From: a virus | Direction: 5' to 3' (one strand) | Virus record (IMG/VR): IMGVR_UViG_3300032323_001387 | Span: 1 to 64,000 of that record | DNA length: 64,000 bases | Part shown: positions 8,281 to 46,694 of the stretch, piece after piece | Layout of the letters: each line of letters starts with the position of its first letter | Position numbering within the stretch: the first letter of the stretch is position 1 | Notes under the pieces: generated by a model | Told to the model about the DNA's origin: nothing | Database searches by the model: none | What the model saw: the letters and a program-made list of their open reading frames with translations, nothing else | Translations under genes and position numbers: made by a program

Positions 8281-8310
8281 ATATGTATAAACCGAAAGGC
8301 TTATACATAT
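8281..8310 (+). promoter_or_regulatory. Perfect 10-bp hairpin holding the start codon of the SPASM gene
   Basis: ATATGTATAA (8281-8290) and TTATACATAT (8301-8310) are perfect complements. Inside, CC and GG close a GAAA loop (8292-8299). The ribosome site (GAAAGG, 8294-8299) lies in the loop and the A and T of ATG 8309 lie in the 3' arm. The hairpin should limit ribosome access or, if transcription starts near 8282, cap and stabilise the mRNA 5' end. T4 uses comparable start-codon hairpins for timing in several genes. Confidence 0.75.
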
Positions 8311-8653
8311 GGATATTTTAGATCCTTCTTGTTTTAACAATACTACAGCACCTTTTATAAAAGCTGATGGCACATATCTTCCTTGTTGTTGGGCTAGTAC
8401 CAATCCCGAAATTCGGATCTTTTTAGGTCCGAATTTATATCAACAATTAAATTTAAATAGTTTTGGCCTAGAAGAAATTAAAAATTCAGATGCCACCAGA
8501 TTAATTATTGAGAAAATATCATCCAACGAACCTTTTACAATTTGTAAAAACACCTGTTCGAAGTCATTACCTGGAAAATCGAGACTAGATCATACAGACA
8601 CAACAGGTGGTGAGTTAGCTTACAATGGTTTAACTAATGAGGTATTACTATGA
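8309..8653 (+). CDS. Stand-alone SPASM-like iron-sulfur domain protein (114 aa)
   Basis: A small protein that looks like the auxiliary Fe-S (SPASM/twitch) half of a radical SAM enzyme without the catalytic half. Cysteines are C8, C26-C27, C79 and C83; C8-x12-G21-x4-C26 fits the first part of the SPASM signature. It overlaps the radical SAM gene at 8650 by four bases (ATGA), so the two are probably co-translated and work as a two-subunit enzyme. A close paralogue (108 aa) is at 29404, also beside a minimal radical SAM gene but in the opposite order, and the fused protein at 32434 carries the same module at its C-terminus. The tail from residue 88 is not recognised. Substrate unknown. Confidence 0.75.
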   Translation: MDILDPSCFNNTTAPFIKADGTYLPCCWASTNPEIRIFLGPNLYQQLNLNSFGLEEIKNSDATRLIIEKISSNEPFTICKNTCSKSLPGKSRLDHTDTTGGELAYNGLTNEVLL

Positions 8654-9318
8654 CATCAGTGTCATACTTAAATGATCCCGATATGTTGGAAATAGAACTT
8701 ACTTCCAAATGCACATTGAGTTGCAGTGAGTGTACCAGAGTCACTGACCCGGACAAAGATAATTGGAACTTTGGAGAAATCAGTGTTGAGGCGATAGAAA
8801 GAATTATATCCGTTACCCCTGCAAAAAGAATTATTTTTTGCGGTGGATATGGTGATCCAATATATCATAGTAAGCTGTTTGATATCATAAAAATATGTCA
8901 CAAATATGATAAAGGTTTACATATAGAAACCTGCGCAAATCTAAGAAAAAAAGAGTGGTGGCAAGAATTAGCGCAGTTACTTAAACCAAATGATGTATTA
9001 AATTTCAGCGTAGACGGCTTGGAGCACAACAATCACTTATACAGAAAAAATGCCGATTGGCAAAGCATTTATACTGCCATGGACGTCATGGGGAAAGAGG
9101 CTAAATGTCTTTTGTTCTGGAAATGGATTGTTTTTAAATACAACGAAAACGATATAGTCGAAGGATACAAACTTTCTAAAAAACTAGGGATACATTATTT
9201 CAGATTGGTAGATAGTACTAGGATGCCACCGGGGTATGCGCCAACAAAAAAACTATCAGATCTGATATTAGAAATACAAGACTACAAAGACTCACAAAAA
9301 ATGTACACCGTTCATTAG
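8650..9318 (+). CDS. Minimal radical SAM protein (222 aa)
   Basis: A radical SAM core with C21-x3-C25-x2-C28 (SKCTLSCSEC), the ligands of the SAM-binding [4Fe-4S] cluster; it should generate a 5'-deoxyadenosyl radical. FCGGYGDP (about 73-80) replaces the usual GGEP, as in its paralogue at 29727 (FSGAYGDP) and in the fused protein at 32434 (MCGNYGDP). VDGLEHNNHLYR and KWIVFKYNEND are shared with that paralogue. It has no auxiliary-cluster domain; that is supplied by the overlapping gene at 8309. At 222 residues it is much shorter than the 390-450 of fused relatives. It is the only radical SAM gene on the plus strand and is AT-richer than its neighbours, so the pair looks like a cassette copied from or to the minus-strand island. 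Confidence 0.88.
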   Translation: MTSVSYLNDPDMLEIELTSKCTLSCSECTRVTDPDKDNWNFGEISVEAIERIISVTPAKRIIFCGGYGDPIYHSKLFDIIKICHKYDKGLHIETCANLRKKEWWQELAQLLKPNDVLNFSVDGLEHNNHLYRKNADWQSIYTAMDVMGKEAKCLLFWKWIVFKYNENDIVEGYKLSKKLGIHYFRLVDSTRMPPGYAPTKKLSDLILEIQDYKDSQKMYTVH

Positions 9319-11986: not shown

Positions 11987-12702
11987 ATAAAATATTTCTT
12001 ATTTTCTTCAATACTTGGTATCACAAAATCTTTTTCATTTAATCCAAATGTTCCACCATTTATCCAATCTAAAATTTTTTCACCTAAAATTTTATTATTT
12101 TCACTGGTTATATGATTATTTCTAATATCAGTAGTATCGCCGGTTAATGTTATACTTAGATCTTTGCCCATAGCTATTGTTTCTTGATAAGCTATTTCAG
12201 ACAAGCTTGTTTGTAAATTTAAAATATTGCAGGCCGATTCAAAACATGGTATAGCTAGTATTTTATTTTTATTGGCTTGTATTACATCCTGTATCATTAG
12301 TCTAGCAATATAAGAATTTTTATCTATATCACAAATGTAATTAAAGTATGACATTGCCGAGGTTAAAGCATCTATAGCAAACTTAGAATTTACATTATTT
12401 GATTTGCTATAATATTCCAAATAAGTTGCCGCATGTTCTGTAGTAGTTATAAACCTATGTATTTTATCATCAAATATGTCGTCTAACATGATTTGAATTC
12501 GATTTTCGTTAGTAACAAACCAAATAATTTTATCAAATTCAAATTGATGTTTTCCTAGCTGTTTAATAGAATAGTATAGATCAGAGCCACCCACTGAAAA
12601 GTTAGTTACACTATGGTATTGCGAAACATATTCCCACCATGACATTGATGGATTTTTCTTATGTTCTTCACCAAAACTGTCTCCAAAAATTCCAATTTTC
12701 AT
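11983..12702 (-). CDS. SGNH/GDSL hydrolase-like protein (239 aa)
   Basis: It starts MKIGIFGDSFG: block I of SGNH hydrolases with candidate nucleophile S9. FSVGGSD (36-42) fits block II (Gly), FVTNENR fits block III (Asn), and DIRNNH near residue 200 provides a possible Asp-x-x-x-His block V. SGNH enzymes remove or transfer acyl groups, often acetyl groups on glycans. No signal peptide is seen, so it works in the cytoplasm. It is the first of seven such genes in the island, overlapping both neighbours by four bases. Sequence identity with the other six is low, so they are not recent copies. Confidence 0.72.
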   Translation of the reverse strand: MKIGIFGDSFGEEHKKNPSMSWWEYVSQYHSVTNFSVGGSDLYYSIKQLGKHQFEFDKIIWFVTNENRIQIMLDDIFDDKIHRFITTTEHAATYLEYYSKSNNVNSKFAIDALTSAMSYFNYICDIDKNSYIARLMIQDVIQANKNKILAIPCFESACNILNLQTSLSEIAYQETIAMGKDLSITLTGDTTDIRNNHITSENNKILGEKILDWINGGTFGLNEKDFVIPSIEENKKYFI

Positions 12703-12929
12703 TTGTCTTGCTCATATACAAACTGAACATCTTTACCAGGGCCCACTTCGCTGGGTAGGCCACCATATTGTTTAACATACCATTCTATAGCAGCCACATA
12801 CCACCCTTGACTATTGTGTCTACTTTCTTTATTAAAAATATAGATGTTATCGTTTGTAGCTGGCATAGTACTAATAACTCTGGCCGCTTCTAATTGTAAT
12901 CTACGTAATGGAAGTTCTTGTATATTCAT
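12699..12929 (-). CDS. Small hypothetical protein (76 aa)
   Basis: No family recognised. It starts MNIQELPLRRLQLEAARV, has a Trp/Tyr-rich middle (GWYVAAIEWYVKQYGG) and an acidic end. It overlaps the next gene by four bases and the previous one by one, so it belongs to the operon. It lies between a radical SAM gene and an SGNH-like gene. It has no cysteine, so it is not an Fe-S partner. A carrier or substrate peptide role cannot be excluded, but there is no leader-core layout. Confidence 0.6.
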   Translation of the reverse strand: MNIQELPLRRLQLEAARVISTMPATNDNIYIFNKESRHNSQGWYVAAIEWYVKQYGGLPSEVGPGKDVQFVYEQDK

Positions 12930-13885: not shown

Positions 13886-15062
13886 ATAGTTCAGGACATA
13901 CCTCACTGAGGTTTTGGTTGCGTTTTTTATCTAGCACAGATGTAAATTTTTTAAAGTCTTGCCAGTGACTCTGTGGCTTGGTCATCATTAAATTTTTTCT
14001 CATGTTATCAAGGAAAAATTTGTTAGCAGTATTATACTTATTTTCCACATAGTCTAACTGCTCTAGTGCTGCCTGCTTGATACTCTCTGGGGCAATAGCA
14101 ACATGTAGATATTCTGGATGAGTAAGCAGTCTATACTCTATCCATTCTGCAGGACGATTAATCAAAGGCTCTGCCCATTCATAAAAGTCTCGGACATTCA
14201 GCATATTGTATAGTTGATAACTTGAGTTTGGGCTGAATAAAAAGTTTTTATACTCGTTGCGGTATTGACACAGCATATCAATCTTACCTGTGATAGTTTC
14301 CCATGAGCATTGTTCCACGCTACGCATATATTCAAACAGCTTACCTGTGCCATCTATGCTTATATTGATGTTTACAGATTTTGCATTACGCAACCGCAAC
14401 AGATGCTGTTCTGTTAGTAGACTGCCATTTGTTGTTATGCTTAGTCGCACATTTTGCAGTATGCCTGCTTCTGATAGAAGATCAAACACATCTAATAGAT
14501 CATTGTTTATAAACGGTTCACCGCCTGTGACCGTTATCATTCTGAGTTCACCGAGTCTGGGCAATAGTTTTGTGACAAATGACATTAGGTCATTTTTATT
14601 TTTAGTGTAATCAACATAGTCGCTTCTATCAAAGCCATTATCTCTGAGCAGCTGGTCGTCGTTTATCCAACTGTTACTGTACATGCTGTTGCACATCCTG
14701 CATTTAAAATTGCATAGATTGCTAGTGTTTAAGAACAAGTGATAAATTTTATTGCCTGTTATACTCTGTTTAAAATCCTTGGTATCCCAGAGGTCAGCGT
14801 TCCACCATCTCTCATTGGTTTTCCAATTGATGCGTTGACTTACAAGACCCTGTGCTTCTCTGCCATGACAAGTATTGCAACCAGGTAAATTCCATTTATC
14901 GTTTACCATGTCAGAACGTAACTGTGCGAAGTTGCTATTGTCCCAAACATTTTCCTCAGTCATTGAGCCCATAGGTGCAGAACTCATCATACACCTACTT
15001 ACAAAGCCTGCGGGATGAGTTGCTATACTAACGAACGGAATCAAACAAACTTTATCTGCCAT
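13866..15062 (-). CDS. Radical SAM protein, N-terminal SPASM-module type (398 aa)
   Basis: A member of the island's dominant family. N-terminal cysteine module: C6-x12-G19-x4-C24, then C62-x2-C65 (CNTC). Radical SAM core: C117-x3-C121-x2-C124 (LCNFKCRMC), followed by VTGGEP and ITTNGS. The C-terminal region has the family signatures HPEYLHVAIAP and FTSVLDKKR, then CPELYENF at the end. It lacks the double cysteine (C24 is followed by Met), like the first half of the 849-residue protein at 20669, to which it is most similar (shared TGNK and SYSN-type segments). Likely a cytoplasmic Fe-S enzyme with two clusters; substrate unknown. It overlaps the preceding radical SAM gene by 11 bases. Confidence 0.9.
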   Translation of the reverse strand: MADKVCLIPFVSIATHPAGFVSRCMMSSAPMGSMTEENVWDNSNFAQLRSDMVNDKWNLPGCNTCHGREAQGLVSQRINWKTNERWWNADLWDTKDFKQSITGNKIYHLFLNTSNLCNFKCRMCNSMYSNSWINDDQLLRDNGFDRSDYVDYTKNKNDLMSFVTKLLPRLGELRMITVTGGEPFINNDLLDVFDLLSEAGILQNVRLSITTNGSLLTEQHLLRLRNAKSVNINISIDGTGKLFEYMRSVEQCSWETITGKIDMLCQYRNEYKNFLFSPNSSYQLYNMLNVRDFYEWAEPLINRPAEWIEYRLLTHPEYLHVAIAPESIKQAALEQLDYVENKYNTANKFFLDNMRKNLMMTKPQSHWQDFKKFTSVLDKKRNQNLSEVCPELYENFDL

Positions 15063-16224
15063 TGGTTAATTCAGGTACTAATTCTGATAAGTTTTCTTCG
15101 CGACTCTGGTCCAATGAATCTGTATACTTTACAAAATCTCCCCACATATGATTCCAATCCTCTGCGTTCATATAATCAATTAGAGACTGGGCACGTTTTA
15201 TATGCAGATATGGTTGGAGTCTTTCTGCCGCTAACTTTTTTAAATTAGCCGGTAATACCCTAACGTTTAGATAATCCGGATGATCCAAAATGTTAAGATG
15301 TATGTCTTTTACATCCATGGACTCTAAATAGTCAAATAACTTATCTAGCTGCAAGATATTATACATTTGGACAGTACAGTGTACCTGCAGATCTATTTTA
15401 CCCTGTGCGCTCATTTCCACAAATTTAGCTAGATTCTTTTCAACAAGATTCCAGCCTGTGGGATATCTGATATACCTGTTAAGGTCGCCATATGCATCCA
15501 CACTGGCATTTATTTTTATCTTTTTAAAGTGCTGCCAATAGTCCACTAGCTTTTTAGGAAGGTTTGTGCAGTTTGTATTATACTTTAAGGTGATGTTTTT
15601 AGCAAGATCTAATTCGATCAACTTATCAAATAACTTATACTGACTGAGAGCAAGTGTAGGTTCTCCGCCTGTTAGATAAATCTCATCTATAGTGTTAGCG
15701 AGCTTCAACAAATTAACCGCAACTGCATCGTCGTTGGGCCAGTTCATACTACTCAGTCTTTTAACTTCAGTATCAGTTAGCTGCTGTTCAACTAGATGCC
15801 ACTCGTCAACCCATTGGTTACTGGCATATGGATTGCACATACGGCATTTCAAGTTGCACAGGTTACCTAAACGTATATCTATATACTGCACGTTTAATTC
15901 GGGTGTTACCACAGCCTCATAGTCAAACATGTATTTTTCGTTCCAAGCTTGGCGAGCACTGCGAACACCGCTATCCTCTTCTCTAAAGCAGCGTTCACAC
16001 ATCGCGGGTCGTTGATCATTTAACAATTCATGCCTGATGTTCTTCATAGTGTTGCTATGCCAGAAATCCTGCATGTCAGCATCTGTTATCTTATATGGTC
16101 GATTAGTGCCGTTTCTCAAAATAAAATTTTTGCCCGGAGTACTATTACAGCAGACCCTAAGATTACCACTGGCATTAGTGGCAAGGTGCATCCATGGCAG
16201 GATACAAAATGTTTTACTTTGCAT
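15052..16224 (-). CDS. Radical SAM protein, N-terminal SPASM-module type (390 aa)
   Basis: N-terminal module C7-x12-G20-x4-C25-C26 and C76-x2-C79 (CERC); core C123-x3-C127-x2-C130 (LCNLKCRMC); YLTGGEP and LKYNTNCT follow. C-terminal family signatures are HPDYLNVRVLP and YTDSLDQSR, ending in VPEL. It starts almost directly with the cysteine module, so it defines the minimal N-terminus of the family. The 11-base overlaps at both ends indicate coupled translation with the dioxygenase-like gene upstream and the radical SAM gene downstream. The two adjacent radical SAM proteins differ enough to expect different substrates or steps. Confidence 0.9.
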   Translation of the reverse strand: MQSKTFCILPWMHLATNASGNLRVCCNSTPGKNFILRNGTNRPYKITDADMQDFWHSNTMKNIRHELLNDQRPAMCERCFREEDSGVRSARQAWNEKYMFDYEAVVTPELNVQYIDIRLGNLCNLKCRMCNPYASNQWVDEWHLVEQQLTDTEVKRLSSMNWPNDDAVAVNLLKLANTIDEIYLTGGEPTLALSQYKLFDKLIELDLAKNITLKYNTNCTNLPKKLVDYWQHFKKIKINASVDAYGDLNRYIRYPTGWNLVEKNLAKFVEMSAQGKIDLQVHCTVQMYNILQLDKLFDYLESMDVKDIHLNILDHPDYLNVRVLPANLKKLAAERLQPYLHIKRAQSLIDYMNAEDWNHMWGDFVKYTDSLDQSREENLSELVPELTNGR

Positions 16225-18342: not shown

Positions 18343-19647
18343 TTATGTTCCTATAAACTTTTCTTTTCTTTTCGCATCCAGTGTATCATTAAACTTTTGA
18401 AACTTTTCGAAATTAACATCATATTTATTAGTAGAAATGCATTCGTCTATCCAATTGATTGCATCCATAATATGGCGTTTGTTATTGATTTCTCGTATAG
18501 TAGTTTCTTCCATTACTCCTAATCTTGCAACTAGTTTTGCTTTTGCTGCTTCTAATCTTTCGACTGGTAGTACGTTGGCGTGTAAAAAACTAGGCCACTG
18601 CAAACGACTGGTATGCCACATAATATCAAAATCACGATCTATAGCATCAAATGTTTCAACTAGATATTCTATGTTAAGCGCAGATATACAAGTACTTGCC
18701 TTTATATAATCTAATTTGTCACCCAAAGATTCTTTGGTTTGTTTTATGTTTTCTTTTATATCTTCCCATACAGACCCGTGCCTAATGTATGCGTTAAGTT
18801 CATCGTAACCATCTATACTGATTGTTAAGCGTATTGCTTTAAACTTCTTCCATAGATCTAATACGTTACGGCCTTTCTTTGCTTCTAAGTCGGTTAAGTT
18901 TGTGCTATACTTCAGAATAACATCACTGGGATCTTTGATGCGATCCAACATATTATAATGCAAAGGATCCATCAATGGTTCGCCGCCGGCAAATTCAAAT
19001 TCCTTAATTTCATCGATTATCTCATATAAATCGCGTACAAACTTATTGTGTGTTTCGTATAAGTTTAATATTGGTTTTCGACGCATGTCGTTACTGTCAA
19101 TGATACCATTGATGTATTCTTGTTCGCCAGGTTCATATATTTCTTTAACATCGTCCCAATCTTTTAGCCACGGCGTACTATCCTTGGGCCAGCACATTCT
19201 ACATTTTAAATTGCAGAGATTGCTTAATTTAAACTCAACAATGGGAATACTCCAAGGCACTAGTTCTGTGCGATTCCATTCATCAACTATATGGGCATAT
19301 TGTTCTGTACGTTCGTAATTCTGACTCTGTCTAAGACTGGTGATACCTTTGTCTTCCATTTTCCAACAAGCGTTGCAGTGTGTATCTCTAACTCCTGTTG
19401 CTAGATTATTTCTGACTGTTTTATATTTTCTATGATTCCATAAATCACGCAATGGAATATTTTTGATATCCCACACCTTGGTACTTCTACAGCACAATCT
19501 GAAGTCGCCATTTGTTGTTGTACTTGTATGTATAAACGGCATTATACAAAATGTTTTATCGTCTACAGTAAAGCCGTACTTCTCTTTAAATAGCTCACTG
19601 GGTTTATAATTTTTCAGGTGCTTTTTACCTAATCCCTCGTTACTCAT
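18343..19647 (-). CDS. Radical SAM protein, N-terminal SPASM-module type (434 aa)
   Basis: N-terminal module C34-x12-G47-x4-C52-C53 and C91-x2-C94 (CNAC); core C145-x3-C149-x2-C152 (LCNLKCRMC); FEFAGGEP and LKYSTNLT follow. C-terminal signatures WPSFLHANVLP and FNDTLDAKR are present but the final PE element is missing, as the protein ends shortly after (EKFIGT). ATG 19647 is chosen because AAGGA lies at good spacing; a TTG two codons earlier is less likely. It has a 30-residue basic N-terminal extension (KKHLKNYKPSELFKEKY). It overlaps the stand-alone SPASM gene at 19640 by eight bases. Confidence 0.9.
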   Translation of the reverse strand: MSNEGLGKKHLKNYKPSELFKEKYGFTVDDKTFCIMPFIHTSTTTNGDFRLCCRSTKVWDIKNIPLRDLWNHRKYKTVRNNLATGVRDTHCNACWKMEDKGITSLRQSQNYERTEQYAHIVDEWNRTELVPWSIPIVEFKLSNLCNLKCRMCWPKDSTPWLKDWDDVKEIYEPGEQEYINGIIDSNDMRRKPILNLYETHNKFVRDLYEIIDEIKEFEFAGGEPLMDPLHYNMLDRIKDPSDVILKYSTNLTDLEAKKGRNVLDLWKKFKAIRLTISIDGYDELNAYIRHGSVWEDIKENIKQTKESLGDKLDYIKASTCISALNIEYLVETFDAIDRDFDIMWHTSRLQWPSFLHANVLPVERLEAAKAKLVARLGVMEETTIREINNKRHIMDAINWIDECISTNKYDVNFEKFQKFNDTLDAKRKEKFIGT

Positions 19648-19978
19648 TGCCAATCCTTAATTTCTTAATATTATTTAATTCTGCTTTACTTAGTTGTATG
19701 TCCGCGGCGCAAGTGCAATTTTCTTTAGTGCAAATAATAGGGTCCGTGGGCACAGAAAATCCAGTGTGTATATCTCCTAACTTGCCGCCTACTTTGCATA
19801 TAGCACGCCATACATTGCCATCATTATCTATGGTTAAATTTTGAACGCCGGCCCAACACATCCAACCTTTGAACTTGTTAGTTTCATTGGCCAGCAAATC
19901 ATTGACATTGCTTTCTTCGCTGGTACCATCTTCATAATGCACCACTATATTTGCCCAATTAGTTACTTTGCTTGTCAT
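19640..19978 (-). CDS. SPASM-like half of a split radical SAM enzyme (112 aa)
   Basis: Cysteines C41, C61, C83, C88 and C90 in the pattern WMCWAGVQNLTIDNDG, AICKVGG and ICTKENCTC match the C-terminal block of the 318-residue radical SAM protein at 12929 (WSC, GSGC, ICPYNTCWC). Its start ATG shares four bases (ATGA) with the stop of the radical SAM core gene at 19975, and a run of six A precedes that TGA. So it is either made by reinitiation as a second subunit or joined to the core by a -1 slip. Without the core it has no catalytic motif. Its role is probably to hold one auxiliary Fe-S cluster near the core active site. Confidence 0.8.
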   Translation of the reverse strand: MTSKVTNWANIVVHYEDGTSEESNVNDLLANETNKFKGWMCWAGVQNLTIDNDGNVWRAICKVGGKLGDIHTGFSVPTDPIICTKENCTCAADIQLSKAELNNIKKLRIGNE

Positions 19979-20676
19979 TTTTTCTTGTTTAACATAAAAT
20001 CAAGTTCTTCTTGAGTGTAGTAATCGTCTTTGCATTTGCCATGCGATGTTTTCAATCCACTCAATCCTGGCACTGCCCAAGTTTTTGTTTCGGGATCTAA
20101 TCTAGGTCTGATTCTTCTTATCACCCAGTGTACATCATTTTCATTCATGATGTCAATGATTTCATTGGCCTCTGCCATTTTACCTGGAAGATACATCAAA
20201 TGTGTGTGCAGATTTTGATTCTTACGTTCTTTAACAAGTTTATTTAACTCCACGATAGTGTTAATAATTTTATCATGATATGCAAATTCAAAATGATAAC
20301 TGAATATATAATAGTTAATATATGGCAGACTCTCTATGTATTTTTTAAGAGGCACACTGCCATTGGTTGTCACGCTAATTTTATTAATACCGTTGTCTTT
20401 GATTATTTTAAGGATATCAATGATCTTTGGGTGCACAAATGGTTCACCACCCGTTAGGCTTATCCTGCATTCCTTGCCCTGTGATCTAGCAACATCTGCA
20501 ATCTGTTTTACTGTTTTCTCGATGACATCTAGACTTAGATGTGCACTTTCTCTATCATGAATATCACTGCCGCAATAGCTACAATCATAGTTGCAGCGCC
20601 TGCCTAGATTCCATTCTATGCGTAGCCATTTATCTTTGGGCGCATAGTTATCTTCTACTGCTACAAGTTTATTCAT
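19975..20676 (-). CDS. Radical SAM core half of a split enzyme (233 aa)
   Basis: Core motif C28-x3-C32-x2-C35 (RCNYDCSYC), then LTGGEPFVHP and SVTTNGS. It ends YYTQEELDFMLNKKK, exactly where the fused homologue at 12929 enters its linker to the SPASM-like block. The last codons are AAG AAA AAA TGA, a slippery-looking A6 run at the stop, and the SPASM half starts at the overlapping ATG in the -1 frame. The radical SAM core appears complete (TIM-barrel strands to IRRIRPRLDP). Upstream it overlaps the 849-residue protein by eight bases (ATGAATAA). Confidence 0.9.
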   Translation of the reverse strand: MNKLVAVEDNYAPKDKWLRIEWNLGRRCNYDCSYCGSDIHDRESAHLSLDVIEKTVKQIADVARSQGKECRISLTGGEPFVHPKIIDILKIIKDNGINKISVTTNGSVPLKKYIESLPYINYYIFSYHFEFAYHDKIINTIVELNKLVKERKNQNLHTHLMYLPGKMAEANEIIDIMNENDVHWVIRRIRPRLDPETKTWAVPGLSGLKTSHGKCKDDYYTQEELDFMLNKKK

Positions 20677-23218
20677 TCCAGTAGCCCTTGAATTCTGGAA
20701 CTACATCCAATATGCTTTCGCCACGCAACTTATCAACTTCGTCAGTAAAGTGTTTGAAAGTATTCCAATGCGTTTCATGAATTCTATTAGATTCAAGGCT
20801 GCGAATTAATACCGCAAAATCTGGTATTCCATGTAATTGATTAACAGCTTGTGTCCTTAGTGCAGGAGGTAATACCATTGGACTTAGATACATTGGATCA
20901 TTACAAATAGTAGTAAAAGCATCAACATTACTGACGTTTTTATATTTTTTACTCCACTCTGCAAGTTGATTGTATAGCTCTCTAAGGTTTAATAAATTAT
21001 AACCTTGTATAGTAACATTAAATCCGATTTGTATGCCTGGTAGTTCATTATACATAGCCATAGTTTCTTCTAACTGTTCTATTGTATATTTTCCTCCACG
21101 TATATAACTATATAAATTTCCCGTGCCTTCTATACTAAACATCATACGAACTTTATTAAATTTTTGTAATGTTGAAAGAATTTTCGGATTGACTACCGTT
21201 CCATTTGTTGTATACTGTAATGTTACATATCTATTTCTACCCTGTCTAATTAATTCTTCTAAAAATTCTACATGGTTTTTAGCCAACATTGGCTCACCGC
21301 CTTTGAAGTCTATTCTACGTAATTTGGTAGTATGTGGTAATAATTCGATTAGATCATTTAGTTCGTGTTGAACTATCTTTTGTCTTTCTGGATTATTCTC
21401 TTTCTTAAAAGCAGGATTAATCTTAGACAATGCAACATCTTCTTCGAACCATTGATTGCTGGCCCAGGAACCACACATACGGCATTTTAAATTGCATACG
21501 TTACTTAAATTTATATCCATTTGTGTCCAGCCTAAATTTTTCTTAGTTACTGGAAGCGTGTAATCCTTATTTACAGGAAGAAACTCTTCGAATTTTTCCT
21601 TGAACCAAATCCTTCTGCTTTTTCCTATTTGGTTTTCTCTTTCCCAACAGCTACTACAGCCAGCCGGTCTTTCATTTCTTAAAAAGGATTCGCGTAGCTC
21701 TATAATTTTTGGGCTTTCAATATATTGACTTACTATGCTATCTTTAGAAGCAGAGCCAATGGAACCGTGCCACTGGCAGCAAGGTTTGATATTCCCGTTA
21801 GCAGTCACTGCAAGACCGTGCCACGGCATATAACAGAAGTTATCCTGTTTACTTACTGTATATTCATCGAAAAAAGGTTTGAAACTTTGATATATTTCAG
21901 GAGCAACTTGTTTAAGAGTTACTCCTCTTATGTCATCAAGTTCTACAGTGTACTTTACAAACTCCTTAGGGCCTTGTTTGGCATCTCCGACTATACTTAC
22001 GGGTTTTTCTATTAATCCTTCAACTAGCTTTTTAATGTCTTTAAGATATCTATGCTCAGTAATAGGCATAACTCCGTTGACTTCCCTGAAGAAATCATAA
22101 GTGTCGAATAGATAATTGATTTGTTCCAAACATTTTTTTAATGTTGTTTGATCTAACCACTGAACGTGCATAGTTTTGGGACCAACTAAAATTCTATGTT
22201 CTAGACTATGTCTGTTCTTGCTAGTGTTTACCGGACGTTGTTTATCCCATCCATAAAATTTAATTATCCACTCAATAAAGTCTTTGATATTCAGTGCGTT
22301 AATAGACATGAATGTTCCATTCATGTTCATTTTATAAACGCCGGTTCTCGGCTTGTCGCACCAGTCTCTGATCAATTCGGCTTTTTTAGTAATGCCTTGC
22401 CAATCAATGATGCCGGCACTTCTAATGTAACTAAACAAGTCGCCAGTAGCATCTAAACTAAGGTTGATGTTTACATACTTAAAACCTTCAAGGGCTTCTA
22501 AATGTTCTTCTGTAATGACGCTACCATTGGTAGTGATCATTAATTCAATTTGTCTATCTAGGCCAGCTGCTCGTAGCATGCCTAAAAATTCCATGAATTG
22601 AGGAACAAGGAATGGTTCTCCGCCAAGTATCTCTACTCTACGCAAGTCCTTGCCATTGTCTACTAATTCTTGTAATTGCTCTGTGGACAATGTGTGTTTT
22701 GTTCTATCAAACATAGAACTGGTTCTAACATAAGGACTTCCAGCGCCGCCAGCTGCAAAGCCACGTTTTTTAAGTTTTTCCTCGTCGCCAATCCATGCAT
22801 TGCTATATGCACTACTACACATCCTGCATTTGAAGTTGCACAAGTTATTGAATGCAATATCTAAGTGAACTAGTTTGTTGCCTGTTAAATTATTATCCCA
22901 ATCAATGTCAGCCCAGCGATCATCAATTACATCTAAGTTTTGCCAATGAGTACGTTTACTGGTTACATTTCTAGATTCTTTACTTTGACAATTCTGACAA
23001 CCATGTGTCCATTCTCCCGCACGTTGAGCTTTTCTCAGGTCCTGGAATGCCTGATTGTCCCACTGTTTGATAATAGAACCATTATTAACATCTCCCATTT
23101 CTGTTTCGCTCATGTGGCAACGAACCATTTTACCAGTGGCATGTATCGCAATGCTACTAACAGGTAGCATACATATAGTAGGGCTTAGTTGTTTATTTTT
23201 ATCGCCTTGTTCACTCAT
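20669..23218 (-). CDS. Tandem double radical SAM protein (849 aa, two complete modules)
   Basis: Two full copies of the family in one chain. Module 1: C16-x12-G29-x4-C34, C74-x2-C77, core C127-x3-C131-x2-C134, ILGGEP, and C-terminal YTVELDDIR with APEIYQSF at about 424-446. Module 2 starts at once: C462-x12-G475-x4-C480-C481, C521-x2-C524, core C575-x3-C579-x2-C582, FKGGEP, and FTDEVDKLR with VPEF near the end. Every ligand is kept in both halves, so both should be active, with up to four Fe-S clusters. The modules differ: the first resembles the 13866 protein and the second the 15052 protein, so fusion of two neighbours is likelier than duplication. No frameshift or stop lies between them. 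Confidence 0.92.
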   Translation of the reverse strand: MSEQGDKNKQLSPTICMLPVSSIAIHATGKMVRCHMSETEMGDVNNGSIIKQWDNQAFQDLRKAQRAGEWTHGCQNCQSKESRNVTSKRTHWQNLDVIDDRWADIDWDNNLTGNKLVHLDIAFNNLCNFKCRMCSSAYSNAWIGDEEKLKKRGFAAGGAGSPYVRTSSMFDRTKHTLSTEQLQELVDNGKDLRRVEILGGEPFLVPQFMEFLGMLRAAGLDRQIELMITTNGSVITEEHLEALEGFKYVNINLSLDATGDLFSYIRSAGIIDWQGITKKAELIRDWCDKPRTGVYKMNMNGTFMSINALNIKDFIEWIIKFYGWDKQRPVNTSKNRHSLEHRILVGPKTMHVQWLDQTTLKKCLEQINYLFDTYDFFREVNGVMPITEHRYLKDIKKLVEGLIEKPVSIVGDAKQGPKEFVKYTVELDDIRGVTLKQVAPEIYQSFKPFFDEYTVSKQDNFCYMPWHGLAVTANGNIKPCCQWHGSIGSASKDSIVSQYIESPKIIELRESFLRNERPAGCSSCWERENQIGKSRRIWFKEKFEEFLPVNKDYTLPVTKKNLGWTQMDINLSNVCNLKCRMCGSWASNQWFEEDVALSKINPAFKKENNPERQKIVQHELNDLIELLPHTTKLRRIDFKGGEPMLAKNHVEFLEELIRQGRNRYVTLQYTTNGTVVNPKILSTLQKFNKVRMMFSIEGTGNLYSYIRGGKYTIEQLEETMAMYNELPGIQIGFNVTIQGYNLLNLRELYNQLAEWSKKYKNVSNVDAFTTICNDPMYLSPMVLPPALRTQAVNQLHGIPDFAVLIRSLESNRIHETHWNTFKHFTDEVDKLRGESILDVVPEFKGYWNE

Positions 23219-29403: not shown

Positions 29404-29730
29404 TTAGTTAATATCTTTTTCAATAAAATTGACCCTAATATTGTTAATCATATCTGCTCGGTCATCACTTTTCTCGGATTTAGAACATAATGTCTGGCAA
29501 ATATTTAAGGGATTTTCTGATTCAATCATTGATCGAATCTTCTGCCAAGCATCCGAATTTATTATTTCGTCATAGGTATAATTAGTCAAATTTAATTGCT
29601 GATATAATTCTTGGCCGAGGAAGTTCTCTAGCTGTGGATTAGTACTAACATAACAACAAGGTACATACATGCCGTTTGGCCGTATAAAAAATAAATTTTT
29701 AGTTTTATAGCATTCGGGATCTAATTTCAT
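29404..29730 (-). CDS. Stand-alone SPASM-like iron-sulfur domain protein (108 aa)
   Basis: Paralogue of the 114-residue protein at 8309, with identical cysteine spacing: C7-x12-G20-x4-C25-C26, then C78-x3-C82. Shared wording includes YQQLNL, TNPQLENFLG versus TNPEIRIFLG, and PLNICQTLCSKS versus PFTICKNTCSKS. It overlaps the radical SAM core gene at 29727 by ATGA and follows it, whereas at 8309 the SPASM gene comes first. It likely provides the auxiliary cluster of a two-subunit radical SAM enzyme. The acidic tail after residue 86 has no motif. Confidence 0.78.
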   Translation of the reverse strand: MKLDPECYKTKNLFFIRPNGMYVPCCYVSTNPQLENFLGQELYQQLNLTNYTYDEIINSDAWQKIRSMIESENPLNICQTLCSKSEKSDDRADMINNIRVNFIEKDIN

Positions 29731-30362
29731 TTTTGCTGGTATTCCTTTAATTCTGAAATGATGTCTTCAAAATTTCTACTAGGTTCCATTCCAGCTGGAT
29801 ATTGTCGGCCACTGTTAACAATTTCAAAATGTTGTATGCCTAGTTGTTTACTTAATTTATATCCTTCGATGACGTCATTTTCATTATATTTAAAAATTAT
29901 CCATTTCCACTGTACCCGAGCAGCAGATTTAGCAATCATTGATTTAATACCCGTTTCGATACTAGGCCAATCCGAATTCACTCTATATAGATTATTTTCA
30001 GGTAATCCATCTATGCTAAACACAAAGGTATCTGATTTAGTAAACATAGGCGCAAGCTGTTCCCACCATTCTTTGCTTCTATAACTACCATTGGTATTAA
30101 TAGTGATTTTTTTATTGTGTTTCTTCACCAGGGATATAATGTCATGAAACTTAGTATGATAAATAGGATCTCCGTATGCACCAGAAAATACCACGCCCTC
30201 AAGCGATGGTACTTTCAATATTTTTTCAATAGCAGAAACATCGACCTCCCCGTATTTCCACTTATGAAGTTTTTCATCAGGATCTTTCGTTCTGGCACAA
30301 TCCGGGCAATAGAGCGTGCACTTGCTGGTTATTTCTAATTCTATTGTTACAGGATCAATCAT
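29727..30362 (-). CDS. Minimal radical SAM protein (211 aa)
   Basis: Core motif C15-x3-C19-x2-C22 (SKCTLYCPDC). FSGAYGDPIYHTKFHDI parallels FCGGYGDPIYHSKLFDI in the plus-strand copy at 8650, and KWIIFKYNENDVIEGYKLSK is nearly identical there. The fused protein at 32434 has the same core plus a C-terminal SPASM module. Here the SPASM module is encoded by the next gene, overlapping by four bases. The preceding radical SAM gene overlaps by eight bases (ATGATTGA). Confidence 0.88.
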   Translation of the reverse strand: MIDPVTIELEITSKCTLYCPDCARTKDPDEKLHKWKYGEVDVSAIEKILKVPSLEGVVFSGAYGDPIYHTKFHDIISLVKKHNKKITINTNGSYRSKEWWEQLAPMFTKSDTFVFSIDGLPENNLYRVNSDWPSIETGIKSMIAKSAARVQWKWIIFKYNENDVIEGYKLSKQLGIQHFEIVNSGRQYPAGMEPSRNFEDIISELKEYQQK

Positions 30363-38539: not shown

Positions 38540-39082
38540 TTAGTTAATGTAATATAGCTCAGGATACTCCACTAATACATGAATACCTTTTTCTTCTGTA
38601 GCTGTTTTATAAGCATTAGCAATATCAGCAGGCGTTTTTAAATCATAAAATTTGGTGTGCGGGCATAGGCTTTTGAATTCTTCAAAATAGCTACCTTTGT
38701 GTTGATGGCCGGGGTCTAAAGGTTTGTCGCTGCCTTTACCCAAACGTATTAAAACATGTGCTTGTTTGCCTGTCATTGCTTGGAATTTATCTAAGTGATT
38801 GACCAATTGATTAGTTGCACTGATAACAAAATCCCATCTTGGATAAAAACTAACAACAGTTTTACCAGCCATAGCCATTCCCAGACTCATACCCATTTGT
38901 GTTTCTTCCATGACGGGAAGTTCAATCATTTTATCCTTAGGCACATTACCCAATGTAGTGCTCATTGGATTACCCGAGTAAACAATTTGTTGTCCAATGA
39001 AAAGTATATCGTCCTTAGCTGCCAATACCGTCATTGCATCAGTTAGTGCATCTTTGTATGGGCTCATTTGTGGTGCTGTCAT
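38540..39082 (-). CDS. Thiamine-diphosphate enzyme, Pyr (E1-beta-like) subunit (180 aa)
   Basis: Resembles the pyrimidine-binding domain of E1-beta/transketolase proteins. MIELPVMEETQMGMSLGMAMAGK (52-74) holds the Glu (E59 or E60) that activates the cofactor; YPRWDFVISATNQLVNHLDKF and ALIRLGKG-type text follow. It stops after the Pyr domain; the C-terminal transketolase domain of ordinary E1-beta (about 325 residues) is missing. The matching PP-domain subunit is at 46065, seven genes upstream. Together they would form a small two-subunit ThDP enzyme, comparable in subunit size to sulfopyruvate decarboxylase. In a glycan island it could transfer a two-carbon or acyl unit to a sugar. Confidence 0.8.
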   Translation of the reverse strand: MTAPQMSPYKDALTDAMTVLAAKDDILFIGQQIVYSGNPMSTTLGNVPKDKMIELPVMEETQMGMSLGMAMAGKTVVSFYPRWDFVISATNQLVNHLDKFQAMTGKQAHVLIRLGKGSDKPLDPGHQHKGSYFEEFKSLCPHTKFYDLKTPADIANAYKTATEEKGIHVLVEYPELYYIN

Positions 39083-44693: not shown

Positions 44694-46080
44694 AAGATAT
44701 CTTGTATGGGTCAGTATCTTTAAAAGATGCGAAATGGTCTCTATTATAAATTAAAATATCTTTCATTGAATAATATAAGTCGTGTAATTCTTTATGACTC
44801 AGTGCATTTAATTTTAATATTTCTTTTTGAATCATTTGCATTCTTGTTGCATAGTCGGGCTCTAGATCATAACTCTCGTCTATAAATGGGCTAAATGTTT
44901 TAAAGCCTAGTTTTCTTAACTGACGTAATGATCCGAAATCGCCAACCATTATAAATGGCTGTAAGTTAATAATAGGCCTATATGTTTTCTCCGAGAAGAA
45001 TGGACTATTATCTATAGGTCCATGGAAACTTGTTTCTGATATAATATGGAAATACGTATCAGTATACCATTCCTTTTTATTATTATCAGTTACAAAGCCT
45101 CTTTTTTCATTAGCAGTTAAATGATTAGTGTCTATTTCATAGGGCAATAGGGCCATTAGATTATTAAAATCTTCGTCTGTAATAGGGCCAGGTAACAAAT
45201 CCTCTACATCGCGTCTAATATGATTTGGGTCATGTGGGATACTAACAAAACTAAAGATACTATTATCTAAAAGACTGTACTTCATTGCCATATAAGCCAG
45301 ATAATATCTGTGTGAACGCATAGACCTATTAAAACAAAGAAACTTTTTTGGTCGTATTTTAGTAATATCTAAATCGCTGTCTCTGACAATGTCAGATATA
45401 TAACCCATTGATGTGGGTCTAGGAAAATCAAACATACAGCGGGCTTGCTGTTGTAATGCTAGATTACCATAAGTGAAATTCGTTAAACTATCCGGAAAAT
45501 CTTTGGTATGATTAAAAAACTTATTGCCAAATATAAACACTAAATTAGATTCACTAACGCCTAATTTACGTAATACTAATTCCAATTCTCGTATACCAGG
45601 CGCAAAATGACAAGGATCTTGTATATTACAAATAACTATTTTGATTCTATTTGCTTTTAAATGATTAATAATAGGTTCAATAATTTCTTCTATAGAATAT
45701 TCAACACTGGTACCGTCTAAGTCGACTTTTACTTTGGCATTCAGCGAATCAATCGAGGTTGCAATTTCAATGGGAAAGATATACGTTGTATCTACGTCAT
45801 TGACATCTATATCATATATTGGAATTATATGCTGTTCGCCAATATTTTTTATAAAATAGTAATGAAAATTACCTAGGTTGTGCATTAAATTCCAACCAAT
45901 GGTTGAATTATTTTTTACTTGCTCTACACATTCATGCGGATTAAATTCATCATGCCCTTGAATATATTTTTTCTCAATATGATTCATTACAACCTGAGGT
46001 ATACCGTTGCTAAAATATACCTTTTCGCCGCGAACATTAGAGTAAATGTGCGAGTATACTGCTTTTAGAATACGACCCAT
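44671..46080 (-). CDS. Phage transferase-like protein, GFKTF family (469 aa)
   Basis: Second paralogue: PKKFLCFNRSMRSHRYYLAYMA (middle) and FFSEKTYRPIINLQPFIMVG, LRKLGFKTFSPFIDESYDLE and LYYSMKDILIYNRDH (end). It is nearest to the 43248 protein, matching along the full length including ICNIQDPCHF versus LNVIHDPLEH. Tandem duplication is likely. The 23-base overlap means their translation is coupled and their amounts tied. Function unknown; glycosyltransferase inferred from context and the weak C-terminal fold resemblance. Confidence 0.7.
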   Translation of the reverse strand: MGRILKAVYSHIYSNVRGEKVYFSNGIPQVVMNHIEKKYIQGHDEFNPHECVEQVKNNSTIGWNLMHNLGNFHYYFIKNIGEQHIIPIYDIDVNDVDTTYIFPIEIATSIDSLNAKVKVDLDGTSVEYSIEEIIEPIINHLKANRIKIVICNIQDPCHFAPGIRELELVLRKLGVSESNLVFIFGNKFFNHTKDFPDSLTNFTYGNLALQQQARCMFDFPRPTSMGYISDIVRDSDLDITKIRPKKFLCFNRSMRSHRYYLAYMAMKYSLLDNSIFSFVSIPHDPNHIRRDVEDLLPGPITDEDFNNLMALLPYEIDTNHLTANEKRGFVTDNNKKEWYTDTYFHIISETSFHGPIDNSPFFSEKTYRPIINLQPFIMVGDFGSLRQLRKLGFKTFSPFIDESYDLEPDYATRMQMIQKEILKLNALSHKELHDLYYSMKDILIYNRDHFASFKDTDPYKISYEFIQQL

Positions 46081-46694
46081 TTGCCTGTTCCATAATGAGG
46101 AAATTTAGATTTATATTCATACCATATAACATCTTCGGGAATATCACGTTTGTGATTCCATGTTGCTACAGTAGGAGTATTAGTAGATACTGCATTATCT
46201 TCTACAATAAAATACAACGGCAAATTAAAGTTTCTAGCATATTTGTGCACTTCATAAAAGATACCGCTTTCAAAACTCATATCACCAATGAAACACCAAA
46301 CTTTTTCATCGCTGCCATTATCTTTAATTGCTTGTGCAACGCCCAATGCAATTGATAATGTACCGCCAACAATAGCACTGGAATAAAATTTATTATCTAA
46401 ATTACATATAGTAATACTTTTTCCAGCTAATATATCTTGTTCAATAGTTGCGGGATCAATGCCTTTAAGCAGTGCATGATAATGACTGCGCCATGTAGAA
46501 AATACCCAATCAGTTGTTTTAATTCTTTTAAAGATTTCAATCAGTTGTTCTTCGTTGCCGTTAGACAAGTGCACTGGGCCACGGATTTTGGCATTTTCCC
46601 AGTGGTTTACAATCTTATCTTCAAATGCTATTAACTCTTCTTTAGTCAAGTCAATTGGCCTTACAATTTCATATTTGTCAATGTTTTTAATCAT
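46065..46694 (-). CDS. Thiamine-diphosphate enzyme, PP (E1-alpha-like) subunit (209 aa)
   Basis: Resembles the cofactor-binding domain of E1-alpha. G137-D138 in CFIGDMSFESGIF and N167 in FIVEDNAVSTNTP form the GD-x28-N thiamine-diphosphate/Mg motif; VFSTWRSHYHALLKGI (64-79) matches the E1-alpha start. At 209 residues it lacks the roughly 100-150 residues of extra N- and C-terminal structure of true E1-alpha. Partner Pyr subunit is at 38540. The two halves are separated by seven or eight sugar-modifying genes, which is unusual because E1 subunits are normally adjacent. It overlaps the downstream GFKTF-family gene by 16 bases. Confidence 0.85.
   Translation of the reverse strand: MIKNIDKYEIVRPIDLTKEELIAFEDKIVNHWENAKIRGPVHLSNGNEEQLIEIFKRIKTTDWVFSTWRSHYHALLKGIDPATIEQDILAGKSITICNLDNKFYSSAIVGGTLSIALGVAQAIKDNGSDEKVWCFIGDMSFESGIFYEVHKYARNFNLPLYFIVEDNAVSTNTPTVATWNHKRDIPEDVIWYEYKSKFPHYGTGKWVVF

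What the first reader, a model, noticed from the sequence alone, without database searches (positions are those of the whole stretch)
20669..23218. Two complete radical SAM enzymes fused in one 849-residue chain
Both halves keep the N-terminal module, the CxxxCxxC core, a GGEP motif and the C-terminal signature. The halves resemble different neighbours (13866 and 15052), which sit side by side as separate genes. This suggests that two successive reactions or a heterodimer were fixed in one protein.
Basis: partly seen in the sequence, partly recalled or inferred. Interest (0 to 1): 0.75.

Follow-up and report, generated by a model that had tools for sequence, protein, structure and literature searches.

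The report
Two radical SAM enzymes fused, repeatedly
A T4-like environmental phage carries one 849-residue protein made of two complete radical SAM enzymes joined end to end; related phages and bacteria keep the same two enzymes as neighbouring separate genes, and such neighbours have been fused at least four times, which suggests that the two enzymes work as a pair, most likely in making or altering a surface sugar.

Summary
The ORF lies on the minus strand at 20669-23218 (849 aa). It contains two full units of NCBIfam NF033640 (N_Twi_rSAM, 'twitch domain-containing radical SAM protein'). Each unit has its own Cys set, CxxxCxxC, GGEP and C-terminal signature, and both are under purifying selection. 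It is no assembly error: the fusion is intact in seven further viral contigs, in four sequence variants (down to about 68% identity).

Half 1 is a paralogue of 13866. Half 2 is not specifically related to 15052, and the order of the neighbours is reversed. The true unfused counterparts are elsewhere: one related phage (L014) and two Bdellovibrionia genomes (L177, L178) carry orthologues of both halves as adjacent, overlapping genes in the same operon order. A third bacterium (L199) has them fused.

A second, different N_Twi pair is fused in two separate phage clades nested among split pairs. By parsimony that makes at least four fusions, confined to 2 of 92 adjacent-pair types sampled, all with both active sites intact.

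The gene sits in a phage island of about 53 kb next to tail-fibre genes, with NDP-sugar genes. Best reading: a fused hetero-pair of twitch-rSAM enzymes tailoring a surface glycan. Substrate and reaction are unknown.

The parts
20669..23218 (-). Fused double twitch-radical SAM protein, 849 aa
   Evidence: NF033640 522 bits, two stretches; same fusion in 7 other contigs
21854..23218 (-). Half 1 (residues 1-455): N-terminal twitch-type Cys module with 4 Cys, rSAM core, C-terminal helical signature; paralogue of 13866
20669..21853 (-). Half 2 (residues 456-849): N-terminal twitch-type Cys module with C, CC, CxxC, rSAM core, C-terminal signature
   Evidence: AF2 pLDDT 94.8, pTM 0.92
19975..20676 (-). 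rSAM core protein (233 aa, no SPASM of its own), next gene of the conserved operon; 8 bp overlap with the fusion
   Evidence: PF04055 55.5 bits; orthologue in the same place in L014, L177, L178, L199
19640..19978 (-). 112-aa Cys protein (CWAG...C...CTKENCTC), probably the detached auxiliary-cluster module of 19975; conserved position
   Evidence: sequence; no Pfam match; synteny
18343..19653 (-). N_Twi_rSAM protein, conserved operon member
   Evidence: NF033640 308.7 bits
13866..15062 (-). N_Twi_rSAM, sister paralogue of half 1
   Evidence: 253 bits; tree support 1.0
15052..16224 (-). N_Twi_rSAM, best window BLAST match of half 2 but in another clade of the tree
   Evidence: 383.9 bits
23211..24497 (-). 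N_Twi_rSAM directly upstream, overlapping the fusion by 8 bp
   Evidence: 272.7 bits
24490..25977 (-). N_Twi_rSAM
   Evidence: 426.7 bits
25967..27235 (-). N_Twi_rSAM
   Evidence: 375.7 bits
30355..31692 (-). N_Twi_rSAM
   Evidence: 257.5 bits
36918..38390 (-). Carbamoyltransferase (island context)
   Evidence: PF16861 183 bits, PF02543 126 bits
40351..43263 (-). Three NAD-dependent epimerase/dehydratases (island context)
   Evidence: PF01370
46704..47249 (-). dTDP-4-dehydrorhamnose 3,5-epimerase family protein (island context)
   Evidence: PF00908 110.9 bits

Best explanation
The protein is a fusion of two partner enzymes of the twitch-type radical SAM family N_Twi_rSAM (NF033640). Shown here: both halves are complete, both keep their SAM-cluster and auxiliary-cluster cysteines, both are under purifying selection, and their unfused orthologues are adjacent, overlapping genes in one operon in a related phage and in Bdellovibrionia genomes. 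Shown on trees: the fusion is old in this phage lineage, and fusion has happened repeatedly in the family. Inferred: each half binds one SAM-cleaving [4Fe-4S] cluster and one auxiliary [4Fe-4S] cluster and generates its own 5'-deoxyadenosyl radical, and the halves act as a fixed 1:1 pair, either as an intramolecular heterodimer or by passing one substrate from half 1 to half 2. Inferred from gene context: the pair tailors a sugar or sugar-bearing precursor made by the phage's large island beside its tail-fibre genes, so that the infected cell's surface (or less likely the virion) is altered.
For: Two complete family units. All catalytic motifs invariant in 14 fused proteins, and both rSAM motifs and GGEP present in all 16 distinct doubles. 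dN/dS low in both halves. Orthologous pair split in L014 (437 + 391 aa, 8 bp overlap) and in L177 and L178, with the same following genes; fused in L199. Second pair fused in two clades nested among split pairs with mostly 1-29 bp overlaps. Only 2 of 92 adjacent-pair types ever fuse, each at least twice. Island of NDP-sugar epimerases, an RmlC-type epimerase, a carbamoyltransferase and GDSL-type proteins, next to tail-fibre and baseplate genes. Phage is T4-like (gp23). Comparable host-recognition islands with glycosyltransferases and rSAM cassettes are described in pelagimyophages (PMC7029224). Known twitch/SPASM enzymes on sugar substrates (SpeY, AprD4, BlsE) are among the structural matches.
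Against: No substrate, product or direct interaction of the halves was shown. pTM 0.57 leaves the inter-domain geometry open. Half 2 occurs without a half 1 orthologue in one 73 kb contig (L095), so the partnership is not obligate everywhere. Fusion of overlapping neighbours can be neutral. The structural matches also include peptide maturases (SkfB, SuiB), so a peptide substrate is not excluded. N_Twi genes also sit in bacterial loci without obvious sugar genes. The distribution could also be explained by an ancestral fusion with later splits (three events instead of two for this pair).
Confidence: 0.55

Rival explanations
1. Neutral fusion: adjacent, overlapping, translationally coupled genes lost a stop codon by a small indel; the two enzymes do unrelated jobs and tolerate being joined.
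For: N_Twi genes in these phages mostly overlap their neighbours by 4-29 bp, so a small indel can join them. At the window junction the fused genes differ from L014 by loss of the TGA stop and 17 extra nt. Linkers differ in length and sequence between fusions.
Against: Fusions fall in only 2 of 92 adjacent-pair types, each at least twice, while other common types (67, 48 and 32 sampled pairs) never fuse. The window-type fusion is kept over near-saturated dS.
Confidence: 0.25
2. One half is the catalyst and the other a structural or electron-relay partner: its SAM site or auxiliary cluster serves the first half rather than a second reaction.
For: Obligatory intermolecular electron transfer between radical SAM enzyme molecules is documented for PapB (PMC10470005). 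Half 1 and the 13866 clade lack the second Cys of the usual CC. Half 1 is the more conserved half (dN 0.11 against 0.25).
Against: All SAM-cluster cysteines, GGEP and four twitch cysteines are invariant in both halves of the 14 aligned fused proteins, as expected of two active enzymes.
Confidence: 0.15
3. The pair modifies a ribosomal peptide (RiPP) rather than a glycan.
For: Foldseek's best solved matches include the sactipeptide maturases SkfB and SuiB. PF13186 SPASM matches.
Against: No precursor-like small gene was recognised next to the fusion; the small ORFs nearby are Cys-module or unrelated proteins. The island holds sugar-nucleotide genes, not recognised peptidases or exporters. The TM-scores are low (0.42 or less of the query).
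Confidence: 0.1
4. Assembly artefact joining two genes.
For: None found beyond the fact that split copies exist (L014).
Against: Same fusion in seven other contigs from separate metagenome assemblies at 68-100% identity, plus a bacterial one.
Confidence: 0.01

Closest known systems
NF033640 N_Twi_rSAM, twitch domain-containing radical SAM protein (NCBIfam)
   Same: Each half is a full-length member: N-terminal twitch-type Cys module, rSAM core, C-terminal region; both halves score over the 170-bit cut-off.
   Different: The family model is 398 positions, one unit; here two units are in one chain. No function for the family was found in the papers searched.
FbiC (FO synthase; CofG + CofH)
   Same: Two radical SAM domains that are one fused chain in many bacteria and two polypeptides in archaea, using two separate 5'-deoxyadenosyl radicals for one product (PMC11917521). 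A functional precedent for this architecture.
   Different: No CofG/CofH model is among the 25 best NCBIfam matches. FbiC halves have no N-terminal twitch module (general knowledge); the genomic context differs.
Radical SAM-rich T4-like marine phages (TARA_ERS488813_N000010, 12 rSAM genes; pelagimyophage host-recognition clusters) and Campylobacter phages CP220/CPt10 (11-12 rSAM)
   Same: Large myovirus with many radical SAM genes in a variable island; beside tail-fibre genes and glycosyltransferases in the pelagimyophages (PMC5332604, PMC7029224, PMC2853527).
   Different: The passages read mention no double-rSAM fusion, and no function was tested.
Twitch/SPASM enzymes on sugars (SpeY, AprD4, BlsE)
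   Same: Radical SAM core plus auxiliary-cluster module, structural matches; they act on aminoglycoside or nucleoside sugars (general knowledge).
   Different: Auxiliary module is C-terminal there, N-terminal here; low TM-scores; single units.

Membership tests
NF033640 N_Twi_rSAM | Score above the curated cut-off of 170 bits over the full model | tested here: met
   522.4 bits in two stretches; halves of the identical protein 242.1 and 290.4 bits, each over nearly the whole model
NF033640 N_Twi_rSAM | N-terminal twitch-type module (C-x9-15-G-x4-C ... CxxC; motif recalled from general knowledge) | tested here: met
   Half 1 C16-x12-G29-x4-C34, C74xxC77; half 2 C462...C480C481, C521xxC524; invariant in 14 fused proteins; pattern scan (the Gly is replaced in half 2 of L008/L009)
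NF033640 N_Twi_rSAM | CxxxCxxC and GGEP of the rSAM core | tested here: met
   PF04055 107.8 bits, two stretches
NF033640 N_Twi_rSAM | Binding of two [4Fe-4S] clusters per unit and reductive SAM cleavage | not testable with these tools
   needs purified protein
FbiC / FO synthase | CofG and CofH sequence families in one chain | tested here: not met
   Best model NF033640 at 522 bits, next 69 bits (MoaA); no CofG/CofH model among the 25 shown
FbiC / FO synthase | Two rSAM domains, fused in some lineages and separate in others, for one pathway | tested here: inconclusive
   Fused and split states shown; a shared pathway is inferred only
SPASM/twitch RiPP maturases (SkfB, SuiB type) | Adjacent precursor peptide gene | tested here: inconclusive
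   None recognised among the small ORFs; no dedicated RiPP search was run

The most novel reading that the evidence does not exclude
N_Twi radical SAM enzymes act as hetero-pairs: two non-equivalent twitch-rSAM active sites work on one bound substrate, or relay electrons between their auxiliary clusters, and selection for this pairing has driven repeated, independent fusion of the same neighbours in phages and bacteria. That would be a general principle of a large uncharacterised enzyme family.
Probability: 0.2. Interest if true: 0.8.

Novelty: new variant of a known kind. Interest (0 to 1): 0.52.

Why it matters
Hundreds of N_Twi radical SAM genes occur in phages and environmental bacteria with no known function. 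Repeated fusion of specific neighbours says which of them work together, and the naturally fused and naturally split versions of the same pair give a ready test of whether two radical SAM active sites co-operate. It also points to a large sugar-tailoring programme carried by a T4-like phage beside its host-recognition genes.

Tried and rejected
Assembly error: rejected. 15052 as the counterpart of half 2: rejected by the tree and by gene order. Mixing single-unit homologues into the alignment of the fused chain for folding: MAFFT split them across both halves, so a fused-only alignment was used. First genome-contig scan with the fused alignment chose poor patterns and found nothing; the half 2 alignment found the bacterial pairs. 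Isolated phages: no record where one place covers 80% of the fusion; only remote single-unit relatives, nearly all in Vibrio phages of the KVP40 kind. Fe-S assembly genes (A-type carrier, IscU/NifU) as described for a related TARA phage: none in this record. PDB sequence search: nothing close, best 8vpo at E 1e-4 to 2e-6. Papers on double twitch-rSAM fusions: none found.

Full report
What was checked. The ORF at 20669-23218 is on the minus strand, starts with ATG and codes for 849 aa. NCBIfam places it in NF033640, 'twitch domain-containing radical SAM protein', with 522 bits in two stretches (cut-off 170); Pfam finds two Radical_SAM and two SPASM-type stretches. In a record that holds the identical protein, the halves score 242 and 290 bits separately, each over nearly the whole 398-position model. 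The record is a virus contig of 172,208 bases with 18 radical SAM matches, two of them in this chain, and a T4-type gp23 capsid gene.

Anatomy. Half 1 is residues 1-455, half 2 residues 456-849. Each has an N-terminal Cys module, CxxxCxxC, GGEP and a C-terminal 'F...T..LD..R...PE' signature. Half 1: C16, C34, C74, C77; C127, C131, C134; GGEP 199-202. Half 2: C462, C480, C481, C521, C524; C575, C579, C582; GGEP 640-643. These are invariant in an alignment of 14 fused proteins, including distant ones at 23-39% identity. The spacing C-x12-G-x4-C...CxxC fits the twitch/SPASM motif (general knowledge). Half 1 and the 13866 type lack the second Cys of the 'CC' found in most relatives. The fused chain modelled with the 14 fused rows gives pLDDT 78.8 and pTM 0.57: two copies of the same fold, relative position uncertain. 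Half 2 alone, with 75 rows, gives pLDDT 94.8 and pTM 0.92, a self-contained domain. No solved structure covers it well: best TM-score on the query 0.42, matches to SkfB, BlsE, SuiB, anSME, viperin, SpeY.

Not an artefact. The same fusion is intact in seven other IMG/VR contigs: 100% (L007), 74% (L008-L011, L013) and 68% (L012). Nei-Gojobori dN/dS between window and L008/L009 is 0.05-0.06 for half 1 and 0.11 for half 2; dS is near saturation, so the values are approximate.

The split state. In L014 (IMGVR_UViG_3300047480_000791) the two halves are separate genes of 437 and 391 aa, at 61% and 64% identity, overlapping by 8 bp, with the same neighbours on both sides as in the window. Gene 1 ends ...TTC AAT GAA TGA; gene 2 starts with the ATG inside that overlap. 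In the window and in L008 the aligned codons read GAA TAT..., with 17 more nucleotides before the first Cys of half 2, so the stop is lost and the frame restored; no ATG, GTG or TTG in frame lies between the junction and C462 in the window or in L008, so half 2 is not obviously made on its own (reading of the sequences). In Bdellovibrionia MAGs L177 (917 kb contig) and L178, orthologues of half 1 (37%) and half 2 (46-47%) are adjacent genes overlapping by 86 bp, followed by orthologues of 19975, 19640 and 18343 in the same order. In Bdellovibrionales MAG L199 the pair is fused (876 aa; 33% and 46%). Among 60 genomes of that order the pair was found in three: two split, one fused.

Relation to the neighbours. 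In a tree of 422 representatives, half 1 and its L014 counterpart are sister to the 13866 clade (support 1.0). Half 2 groups with its L014 counterpart, L095 and then L157/L020, not with 15052. By BLAST the best window match of half 2 is 15052 (150 bits), with 13866 at 135 and 23211 at 127. In the window 15052 precedes 13866 in the direction of transcription, the reverse of the order in the fusion. The fusion is therefore not a joined copy of that neighbouring pair.

Recurrence. Two further fusions, L027 (846 aa) and L059 (851 aa), turned up in a scan of all ORFs in the loci. They join a different N_Twi pair, which is split with overlaps of mostly 1-29 bp in most phages. On a tree of the concatenated pair the fused proteins form two clades, each nested among split pairs with strong support. 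For the window pair, trees of the two halves place the bacterial fusion L199 with the split bacterial pair (support 60/65 for half 1, 100/100 for half 2). For half 1, L014 is outside the fused phages (99.8/100); for half 2 it groups with L012 (93/94), so a later split or recombination in L014 is possible. With split as the ancestral state, this pair needs two fusions under the half 1 tree (one more event under the half 2 tree); with fused as ancestral it needs three events. Counting all, at least four fusions are the simplest reading. Among 382 distinct adjacent N_Twi pairs in 92 types, fusions occur in two types only. This count is biased, because some searches were seeded with fused proteins; the comparison with other common types in the same loci is fairer, but the number of events is small. 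Both rSAM motifs and GGEP are present in all 16 distinct doubles.

Surroundings. The gene lies in a minus-strand island of about 53 kb between tail-fibre/virion genes (60511, 62116; baseplate wedge beyond) and thyX. The island holds a carbamoyltransferase, three epimerase/dehydratases, an RmlC-type epimerase, a split TPP-enzyme pair, a nitroreductase, an aspartyl-hydroxylase-like protein and a GDSL protein by Pfam, plus several that resemble it by their first residues. Pelagimyophages carry a comparable hypervariable host-recognition cluster with glycosyltransferases and radical SAM cassettes (PMC7029224); a T4-like TARA genome has 12 radical SAM genes (PMC5332604); Campylobacter phages CP220 and CPt10 have 11-12 (PMC2853527). 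None of the passages read describes a double fusion.

How it most likely works. Shown: two complete, conserved units and a conserved partnership at gene level. Inferred: two radical SAM active sites, each with an auxiliary cluster, held in a 1:1 pair that modifies one molecule in one or two steps, probably a sugar or sugar-bearing precursor of the island. FbiC is the established precedent of two radical SAM domains that are fused in some lineages and separate in others (PMC11917521). Electron transfer between radical SAM molecules is also documented (PMC10470005), so a relay role for one half is a real rival. Neutral fusion of overlapping genes is the main alternative.

Verdict. Observation confirmed, interpretation partly right, proposed partner for half 2 wrong. 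A new architectural variant of a known family, made more interesting by its recurrence and by the existence of split counterparts that allow a direct test.

Noticed in passing
window 8309-8653 (+) with 8650-9318 (+); 29404-29730 (-) with 29727-30362 (-); 19640-19978 (-) with 19975-20676 (-): Detached auxiliary-cluster modules: the first two small proteins match PF13186 SPASM (22.0 and 33.6 bits), the third has similar Cys spacing without a Pfam match; each overlaps by 4 bp a 211-233 aa radical SAM core gene. The same phage thus has both split and doubled radical SAM enzymes.
   Followed up: partly
window 10267-63984 (-) and whole record G000: Island of about 53 kb with most of the 18 radical SAM matches of a 172 kb T4-like phage, next to tail-fibre and baseplate genes.
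   Followed up: partly
L177, L178, L199 and their genomes (G008-G010): Bdellovibrionia MAGs carry 13-24 matches to the half 1 profile, many in one locus; the direction of exchange between phages and these bacteria is open.
   Followed up: partly
window 38540-39082 and 46065-46694 (-): A thiamine-diphosphate enzyme split in two genes 7 kb apart: pyrimidine-binding part (PF02779) and E1/DXP-synthase-like part (PF00676, PF13292).
   Followed up: no
window 11983, 27228, 28165, 39084, 48669, 49448, 50332 (-): Several proteins that begin with a GDSL-like motif (GDSF, GCSF, GCSY); only 50332 passes the Pfam GDSL cut-off. Similar genes sit beside N_Twi arrays in other phages such as L027, L039, L059.
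   Followed up: no
window 12699-12929 (-): 76-aa ORF of unknown function, 83-88% identical in L008, L012 and L014.
   Followed up: no
L195 7303-10293, L222 5097-7661, L251 6830-9907: Bacterial N_Twi units inside longer proteins (996, 854, 1025 aa) with another N-terminal region, not identified.
   Followed up: no
BFVD entry A0A1B1IX00 (974 aa): Foldseek aligns it to the fused model over 835 columns with TM 0.38 on the query: possibly another double unit in a viral protein.
   Followed up: no
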